Below are positions 33,248 through 33,467 of a stretch of DNA of 40,122 nucleotides, piece by piece. The DNA is taken from assembly GCA_030830305.1 (NCBI GenBank), contig JAURNI010000034.1, forward strand, positions 1 through 40,122, read 5' to 3'. This DNA comes from Alphaproteobacteria bacterium (GTDB lineage: Bacteria > Pseudomonadota > Alphaproteobacteria > Rickettsiales > Deianiraeaceae). The notes beneath the pieces are model-generated. The model was not told the origin of the DNA, ran no database searches, and saw only the letters and a program-made list of their open reading frames with translations. The translations under genes were made by a program, and so were the position numbers. Position 1 is the stretch's first letter, and each line of letters begins with the position of its first letter.

Positions 33248-33467
33248 AACTTGTTAACAAATACAATATACTATATTAGTAGGTATACATTGTGAATAAA
33301 TATCAACACAAATATTAAAGTTATCAACACTTTATTAACATACATATACAGACATACATATTAATATTATATACGTTATACTTGATTTTATATATAATAT
33401 AATAGTAATTATAAACATATACACATAGTATATATATGTTATTTTTATTAAGTATATAATATAGTAA
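33248..33467. other. Candidate chromosomal origin of replication (oriC)
   Basis: 220-bp very AT-rich divergent intergenic region; DnaA-box-like 9-mers TTATTCACA (minus strand, 33291-33299), TTATCAACA (33321-33329), TTATTAACA (33332-33340), ATATCAACA (33300-33308), TTGTTAACA (33251-33259); long AT tract 33359-33467; parS-like sites on both sides; G/C bias switch. Confidence 0.6.

What the first reader, a model, noticed from the sequence alone, without database searches (positions are those of the whole stretch)
33248..33467. Candidate chromosomal replication origin between mltG and tsaD
Seen: a 220-bp divergent gap, almost entirely A/T, with clustered DnaA-box-like 9-mers: TTATTCACA (fits TTATNCACA), TTATCAACA, TTATTAACA, ATATCAACA and TTGTTAACA, all within 33251-33340. 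These are followed by about 110 bp of AT-only-like sequence (possible unwinding element). Sampled by hand, the + strand just left is C-rich (lines 32821-32880 and 33061-33240: G 27, C 61) and just right is G-rich (34261-34440: G 48, C 18). The bias is weaker over the oppositely transcribed lptG-like gene (34501-34680: G 37, C 32), so transcription contributes. Together with parS-like sites on both sides this is the expected anatomy of an alphaproteobacterial origin. The mltG/tsaD context is not one I know as a described oriC location.
Basis: partly seen in the sequence, partly recalled or inferred. Interest (0 to 1): 0.85.

Follow-up and report, generated by a model that had tools for sequence, protein, structure and literature searches.

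The report
Relocated replication origin between mltG and tsaD
A short, very AT-rich gap between two unrelated genes is very probably the place where this small alphaproteobacterial chromosome starts copying itself; it sits at a spot not described before as an origin, beside the sites used to segregate the chromosome, in a lineage whose initiator protein has an altered DNA-reading surface.

Summary
The 220-bp mltG<>tsaD gap has the densest DnaA-box-like array in the window. The same gap ranks first in the same-genus genome G004 (1.12 Mb scanned). The array is conserved in all four same-genus species that have the locus, at fixed 20-21 and 11 bp spacing, although gene order in the genus is scrambled. 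parS centromere sites lie inside tsaD in all four species (0.7-0.9 kb away), and a perfect parS lies at 37563. Strand-corrected third-codon skew switches exactly at this gap in the window and in an independent contig of G001. In the one-contig relative G006 the skew minimum coincides with parS, not with dnaA, hemE or parB. The gap also holds the least stable 100 bp of the window.

Corrections: the only canonical box, TTATTCACA, is not conserved; the conserved boxes are TTATSAACA-like. This fits the genus' DnaA, whose base-reading residues P423, D433 and T435 are changed to K, T/S and S. hemE and dnaA are elsewhere and have no box array. Against: G004's skew does not flip cleanly, and there is no experiment. 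An ordinary kind of element (oriC) at a new location with divergent boxes.

The parts
33241..33467 (.). Predicted oriC: DnaA-box array (33241-33340) followed by AT-rich unwinding region (33341-33467)
   Evidence: Box density, four-species conservation, genome-wide rank in G004, strand-skew switch, lowest stability
33241..33249 (-). Box 1, TTATGAACA, overlapping the mltG start codon; invariant in 4 species within TGTTCATAASTTGTT, which occurs once per genome
33251..33260 (.). TTGTTAACAA palindrome; only the left half (TTGTT) is conserved
33291..33299 (-). TTATTCACA, the only canonical TTATNCACA box; not conserved in relatives
33300..33308 (+). Box 2, ATATCAACA (TTATCAACA in G003 and G004); 8 of 9 columns invariant
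33321..33329 (+). Box 3, TTATCAACA (TTATGAACA in the others); 8 of 9 columns invariant, 20-21 bp after box 2
33332..33340 (+). Box 4, TTATTAACA (weaker, 5 of 9 columns invariant), 11 bp after box 3
33364..33463 (.). Least stable 100 bp of the window (-92.0 kcal/mol; mean -122.0, sd 7.7): candidate DNA unwinding element
33409..33426 (+). Second conserved block TTATAAACATATACACAT upstream of tsaD (possible weak box or tsaD promoter)
32255..33247 (-). mltG (endolytic transglycosylase), left flank
   Evidence: Pfam PF02618, NCBIfam TIGR00247
33468..34502 (+). tsaD (t6A synthesis), right flank; carries a parS-like site in a variable loop
   Evidence: Pfam PF00814, NCBIfam TIGR03723
34151..34166 (.). 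parS-like TGTTCTACATGGAACA inside tsaD (2 mismatches); a parS-like site lies in tsaD in all 4 species
37563..37578 (.). Perfect palindromic parS-like site TGTTCCACGTGGAACA inside the class I aminoacyl-tRNA synthetase gene
32284..32299 (.). parS-like TGTTACACGTGGAACT inside the 3' part of mltG (2 mismatches)
39315..40055 (-). CcrM-like adenine methyltransferase with C-terminal HNH domain (cut by contig end); its homologue in G006 lies 1.3 kb from that genome's parS

Best explanation
The mltG-tsaD gap is the chromosomal origin (oriC) of this genus. The genus' own DnaA, with a modified domain IV, binds a phased array of TTATSAACA-like boxes (33241-33340). Its oligomer melts the adjacent AT-rich stretch (33341-33467), the helicase is loaded there, and forks leave in both directions. 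ParB bound to parS in tsaD, in the 37.5-kb gene and in mltG then captures the newly copied origin for segregation. Shown here: the sequence features, their conservation, the parS neighbourhood, the strand switch and the low stability. Inferred: DnaA binding, melting, bidirectional initiation and ParB binding.
For: (1) Box array: p about 0.001 against shuffles of the gap. It is the top box-density site of the window (73.1; next 26.5) and of 1.12 Mb of same-genus G004 (62.2; next 42.7). The weight matrix was built from these boxes, so only the rank against other places counts; the simple TTATN[CA]ACA count also ranks it first. (2) The divergent mltG-tsaD pair and array are kept in G000, G001, G003 and G004. 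Box columns are invariant 32/48 versus 49/172 elsewhere in the gap (Fisher p 3e-6); spacings are 59-61 and 20-21 bp. TGTTCATAASTTGTT occurs once in each of the four genomes, always here. Gene order elsewhere is scrambled. (3) A parS-like site lies inside tsaD in all four; in G001 and G003 every genome-wide hit with up to 2 mismatches is in tsaD or mltG. parS almost always lies near oriC (PMC7383237). (4) Strand-corrected third-codon skew switches at 33367 in the window (p 0.004) and at 17063 in G001, i.e. at the same gap (p 0.002). (5) In one-contig G006, skew changes sign at 980-1040 kb, with its only perfect parS at 1035 kb and homologues of window genes at 979, 1003 and 1037 kb; dnaA (0), parB (141 kb) and hemE (277 kb) are elsewhere. 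(6) Least stable 100 bp of the window; fifth of the whole G004 assembly.
Against: G004 contig C3 shows no clean skew flip: right of the gap positive, the nearest 10 kb left neutral, further left positive. Only 6.7 kb lies to the right of the gap in the window, and its genes are largely the same in G001, so the two strand-switch results are not fully independent. GC skew alone is not significant in the window (p 0.26). G006 does not have this arrangement, so its origin must lie at another gene pair. No GANTC and no clear DnaA-trio run in the gap. No experiment and no complete genome of this genus.
Confidence: 0.85

Rival explanations
1. The gap is a conserved bidirectional promoter region. The repeated TTATSAACA 9-mers are operators for a transcription factor (or for DnaA acting as one) controlling mltG and tsaD; the true origin is elsewhere.
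For: Divergent promoters also conserve operators; box 1 overlaps the mltG start codon, and a second conserved block sits just upstream of tsaD. G004 skew is not clean here.
Against: Does not explain parS in tsaD in all four species, the strand-skew switch at this gap in two species, the extreme instability, or the synteny with the G006 skew minimum.
Confidence: 0.08
2. The origin is at the usual alphaproteobacterial neighbourhood (hemE, near dnaA/parB), and the mltG-tsaD gap is only origin-proximal or a DnaA-titration site.
For: In G004, hemE (246.7 kb), dnaA (254.3 kb) and parB (237.0 kb) sit together on contig C1, where cumulative GC skew has a shallow local minimum near 248 kb. hemE-adjacent origins are the rule in Caulobacter, Rickettsia and Wolbachia (PMC1914354).
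Against: No box cluster there in the whole-assembly scan of G004; no parS-like site with up to 2 mismatches to TGTTCCACGTGGAACA on that contig; GC3 skew after strand correction is near zero on both sides; in G006 neither hemE, dnaA nor parB lies at the skew minimum.
Confidence: 0.05
3. Chance: an AT-rich gap accumulates TTAT...ACA words.
For: The gap is 84% AT and the box definition is loose.
Against: Shuffles of the gap itself, first rank in 1.12 Mb of G004, fixed spacing and preferential conservation of box columns.
Confidence: 0.02

Closest known systems
Alphaproteobacterial oriC at hemE (Caulobacter crescentus, Rickettsia, Wolbachia; PMC1914354)
   Same: Short AT-rich intergenic region with a cluster of DnaA boxes, more AT-rich than the genome, conserved within a genus; sequence only similar among close relatives.
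   Different: Flanks are mltG and tsaD instead of hemE with COG1806 or COG1253; 220 bp rather than about 380-620 bp; boxes are mostly TTATSAACA, not TTATNCACA; no GANTC in the gap; CtrA and IHF sites not assessed.
Escherichia coli oriC with canonical DnaA boxes (TTATCCACA) and a flanking unwinding element
   Same: Array of 9-mers with helical spacing next to an AT-rich low-stability region.
   Different: Not one TTATCCACA; position 6 is A in the conserved boxes; DnaA residues P423, D433 and T435 replaced by K, T/S and S.
Origin-proximal parS/ParB centromere (TGTTTCACGTGAAACA consensus, PMC7383237)
   Same: Near-palindromic 16-mers of the same pattern within a few kb of the origin; ParB encoded in the genome.
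   Different: Local version is TGTTCCACGTGGAACA; sites lie inside coding sequence (tsaD, mltG, aminoacyl-tRNA synthetase); parB is not nearby.

Membership tests
Bacterial chromosomal origin (oriC) | Cluster of DnaA-binding 9-mers beyond chance and unique in the genome | tested here: met
   own genome checked by pattern only
Bacterial chromosomal origin (oriC) | Adjacent AT-rich, easily melted region | tested here: met
Bacterial chromosomal origin (oriC) | Strand-composition switch at the site | tested here: inconclusive
   Met in the window and G001; not clean in G004; the G006 skew minimum is at the region syntenic with the window
Bacterial chromosomal origin (oriC) | Origin-proximal parS | tested here: met
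Bacterial chromosomal origin (oriC) | Conservation among close relatives | tested here: met
   Four of the five genomes of the genus; G002 is incomplete and lacks the locus
Bacterial chromosomal origin (oriC) | Initiates replication in the cell; binds DnaA | not testable with these tools
   needs read depth, footprinting or a plasmid assay
hemE-type alphaproteobacterial oriC | hemE next to the origin | tested here: not met
   hemE is on contig C63 in the window's genome, C1:246.7 kb in G004 and 277 kb in G006
Canonical DnaA box TTATNCACA | C at position 6 and conservation in relatives | tested here: not met
   The single TTATTCACA is not conserved; conserved boxes are TTATSAACA-like
parS | Near match to TGTTNCACGTGNAACA, near the origin | tested here: met
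   ParB binding not tested

The most novel reading that the evidence does not exclude
In this reduced alphaproteobacterial family the origin has left its ancestral hemE/dnaA neighbourhood and moved between genera, and DnaA's base-reading surface changed with it (P423K, D433T/S, T435S in this genus; even the H434 position is lost in genus g5), so that DnaA box specificity has been rewritten to TTATSAACA while the parS centromere travels with the origin inside coding sequence of tsaD.
Probability: 0.45. Interest if true: 0.65.

Novelty: new variant of a known kind. Interest (0 to 1): 0.52.

Why it matters
Alphaproteobacterial origins are usually found by looking beside hemE or dnaA, and that rule fails here. 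If confirmed, the genus and its relatives form a natural series in which origin position, DnaA box and DnaA's contact residues have changed together, so the question of how an essential initiator-site pair can be rewritten becomes testable. It also supplies a way to set the zero point of these genomes (array plus parS plus strand switch).

Tried and rejected
Raw GC skew of the window is dominated by gene strand and was replaced by strand-corrected third-codon skew. Genome-wide TTATNCACA density does not single out the gap. The first named-genome scan with tsaD found nothing; the second, with an alignment, returned only unrelated tsaD from many phyla, so the organism could not be named. My first reading that R399 of DnaA is lost was an alignment slip and was dropped: it is retained; P423, D433 and T435 are the changed ones. 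DnaA residues T433/S435 also occur in some distant DnaAs in the hit list, so they are not unique to this genus. No TTATSAACA array was found in G006; its DnaA domain IV is more divergent, so its boxes are probably different. A compound pattern was too strict to match anything. Literature searches for an origin at tsaD or mltG found nothing in the held library.

Full report
WHAT IS THERE. The window is the whole of contig C13 of a 1.18-Mb, 107-contig genome estimated 97% complete. Against dinucleotide shuffles of the gap itself the excess of box-like words has p of about 0.0005-0.0025. The exact canonical word TTATNCACA occurs 92 times in the genome and only once in the gap.

CONSERVATION. The genus has five genomes in the held set. 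Four contain the divergent mltG-tsaD pair with a gap of 200-223 bp; the fifth (G002, 73% complete) lacks the locus. Aligning the four gaps shows that the conserved blocks are the boxes: 32 of 48 box positions are invariant versus 49 of 172 others (Fisher p 3e-6), and the distances between the anchors are 59-61 and 20-21 bp, with a weaker box about 11 bp further on. The conserved boxes are TTATGAACA (minus strand), (T/A)TATCAACA and TTATSAACA. TGTTCATAASTTGTT occurs once per genome, always at this gap. This stands out because neighbouring genes of the window map to many different contigs in G004; what is kept are mostly operon-like blocks, and this divergent pair.

UNIQUENESS. In G004, 1.12 Mb of which I scanned, the gap is the first-ranked box cluster by simple counting of TTATN[CA]ACA and by a weight matrix (62.2 versus 42.7 for the next place). 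In the window it scores 73.1 versus 26.5. For the window's own genome only a two-box pattern was run genome-wide: eight places match, of which this is one.

CENTROMERE SITES. TGTTCCACGTGGAACA, a parS-type palindrome, is perfect at 37563, and 2-mismatch versions lie at 32284 (in mltG) and 34151 (in tsaD). In G001, G003 and G004 a parS-like site also lies inside tsaD, in a variable loop of the protein and at a slightly different place in G001. In G001 and G003 all genome-wide hits with up to 2 mismatches are in tsaD or mltG. In G004 the three 1-mismatch sites are at 21.8, 35.5 and 50.6 kb of the same contig, the outer two about 14 kb on either side of the gap. parS is almost always close to oriC (PMC7383237). 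parB itself is elsewhere.

STRAND COMPOSITION. I compared third codon positions separately for genes on the two strands and searched for the single best change point. In the window it falls at 33367 (G+T versus C+A p 0.004; GC alone p 0.26). In G001's 23.8-kb contig it falls at 17063, again between mltG and tsaD (p 0.002 for both measures). In G004 there is no clean flip: the mltG side is positive as expected, the nearest 10 kb on the tsaD side is neutral, and further out it is positive again. Frequent rearrangement may explain this, but it is the main piece of contrary evidence. G006, same family and one contig of 1.2 Mb, has a clear two-arm pattern with sign change at 980-1040 kb and near 490 kb. 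Its only perfect parS is at 1035 kb, and homologues of the window's cydA, dapD and CcrM-like genes lie at 979, 1003 and 1037 kb, so the window corresponds to the origin region of G006. But mltG (591 kb) and tsaD (658 kb) lie elsewhere in G006, so the exact origin gap differs between genera.

DUPLEX STABILITY. The least stable 100 bp of the window starts at 33364 (-92.0 kcal/mol; mean -122.0, sd 7.7), directly after the box array; in G004 the gap ranks fifth in the assembly.

THE INITIATOR. dnaA is on another contig. Papers list E. coli R399, P423, D433, H434, T435 and H439 as base-contacting residues (PMC7561715; PMC5043019). In this genus R399, H434 and H439 are kept (residue numbering counted by hand from the E. 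coli C-terminus), and P423, D433 and T435 are K, T/S and S, in all 18 genus-level DnaAs found. Most other families of the order keep the canonical D433. Other genera of the family diverge further. I infer that box specificity has drifted, which fits the A at box position 6; binding was not tested. The residue pair T433/S435 also occurs in some distant DnaAs, so it does not by itself dictate the box.

THE CLASSICAL LOCATION. hemE-adjacent origins are the described alphaproteobacterial pattern (PMC1914354). Here hemE is on another contig. In G004, hemE, dnaA and parB lie within 18 kb with a shallow raw skew minimum, but there is no box cluster and no parS-like site with up to 2 mismatches to TGTTCCACGTGGAACA there, and the corrected skew is near zero on both sides.

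VERDICT. The most economical reading is that mltG-tsaD is the oriC of this genus: DnaA binds the phased array, the adjacent AT-rich DNA opens, and parS/ParB handles the sister origins. Sequence evidence is strong, function is inferred. The element is of a known kind; its location, its boxes and the association with an altered DnaA are new as far as the held literature shows. That the organism is alphaproteobacterial rests on the named relatives of its MltG; it could not be named more closely.

Noticed in passing
L001 (DnaA, G000:C3) and the DnaA genes of the family in L145-L158: DnaA domain IV is eroded or rewritten throughout the family: e.g. NRNHSTV in g2, FGFSAHASV in g7, LKSHTN in g3, and FGKKTPSCV in g5, where the H434 position is lost; other families of the order mostly keep (R/K)DHTTV.
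   Followed up: partly
39315-40055; L048:11313-12671: CcrM-like adenine methyltransferase with a C-terminal HNH domain (HNH also resembling the one in Cas9/IscB models), near the candidate origin region in the window, G004 and G006.
   Followed up: no
whole window versus G004: Gene order is scrambled within the genus: consecutive window genes map to at least seven different G004 contigs, with only short blocks kept.
   Followed up: partly
21001-25000: Block of 20-29% GC with genes lacking clear family matches, partly syntenic with G004 C3:19.8-23.3 kb, where a parS-like site (21827) and two TTATGAACA words also lie.
   Followed up: no
36230-36628 and 27193-28748: TrbC/VirB2-type pilin gene (Pfam), and two genes that look like VirB8 and VirB9/TrbG (by eye only): scattered type IV secretion genes.
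   Followed up: no
G004 contig C3: 21827, 35470, 50564: Three 1-mismatch parS sites, the outer two almost symmetric (about 14 kb) around the mltG-tsaD gap.
   Followed up: no
G000 contig C101: 3257 and 7472: Two further 2-mismatch parS-like sites on another contig of the window's genome, which may be a neighbour of C13.
   Followed up: partly
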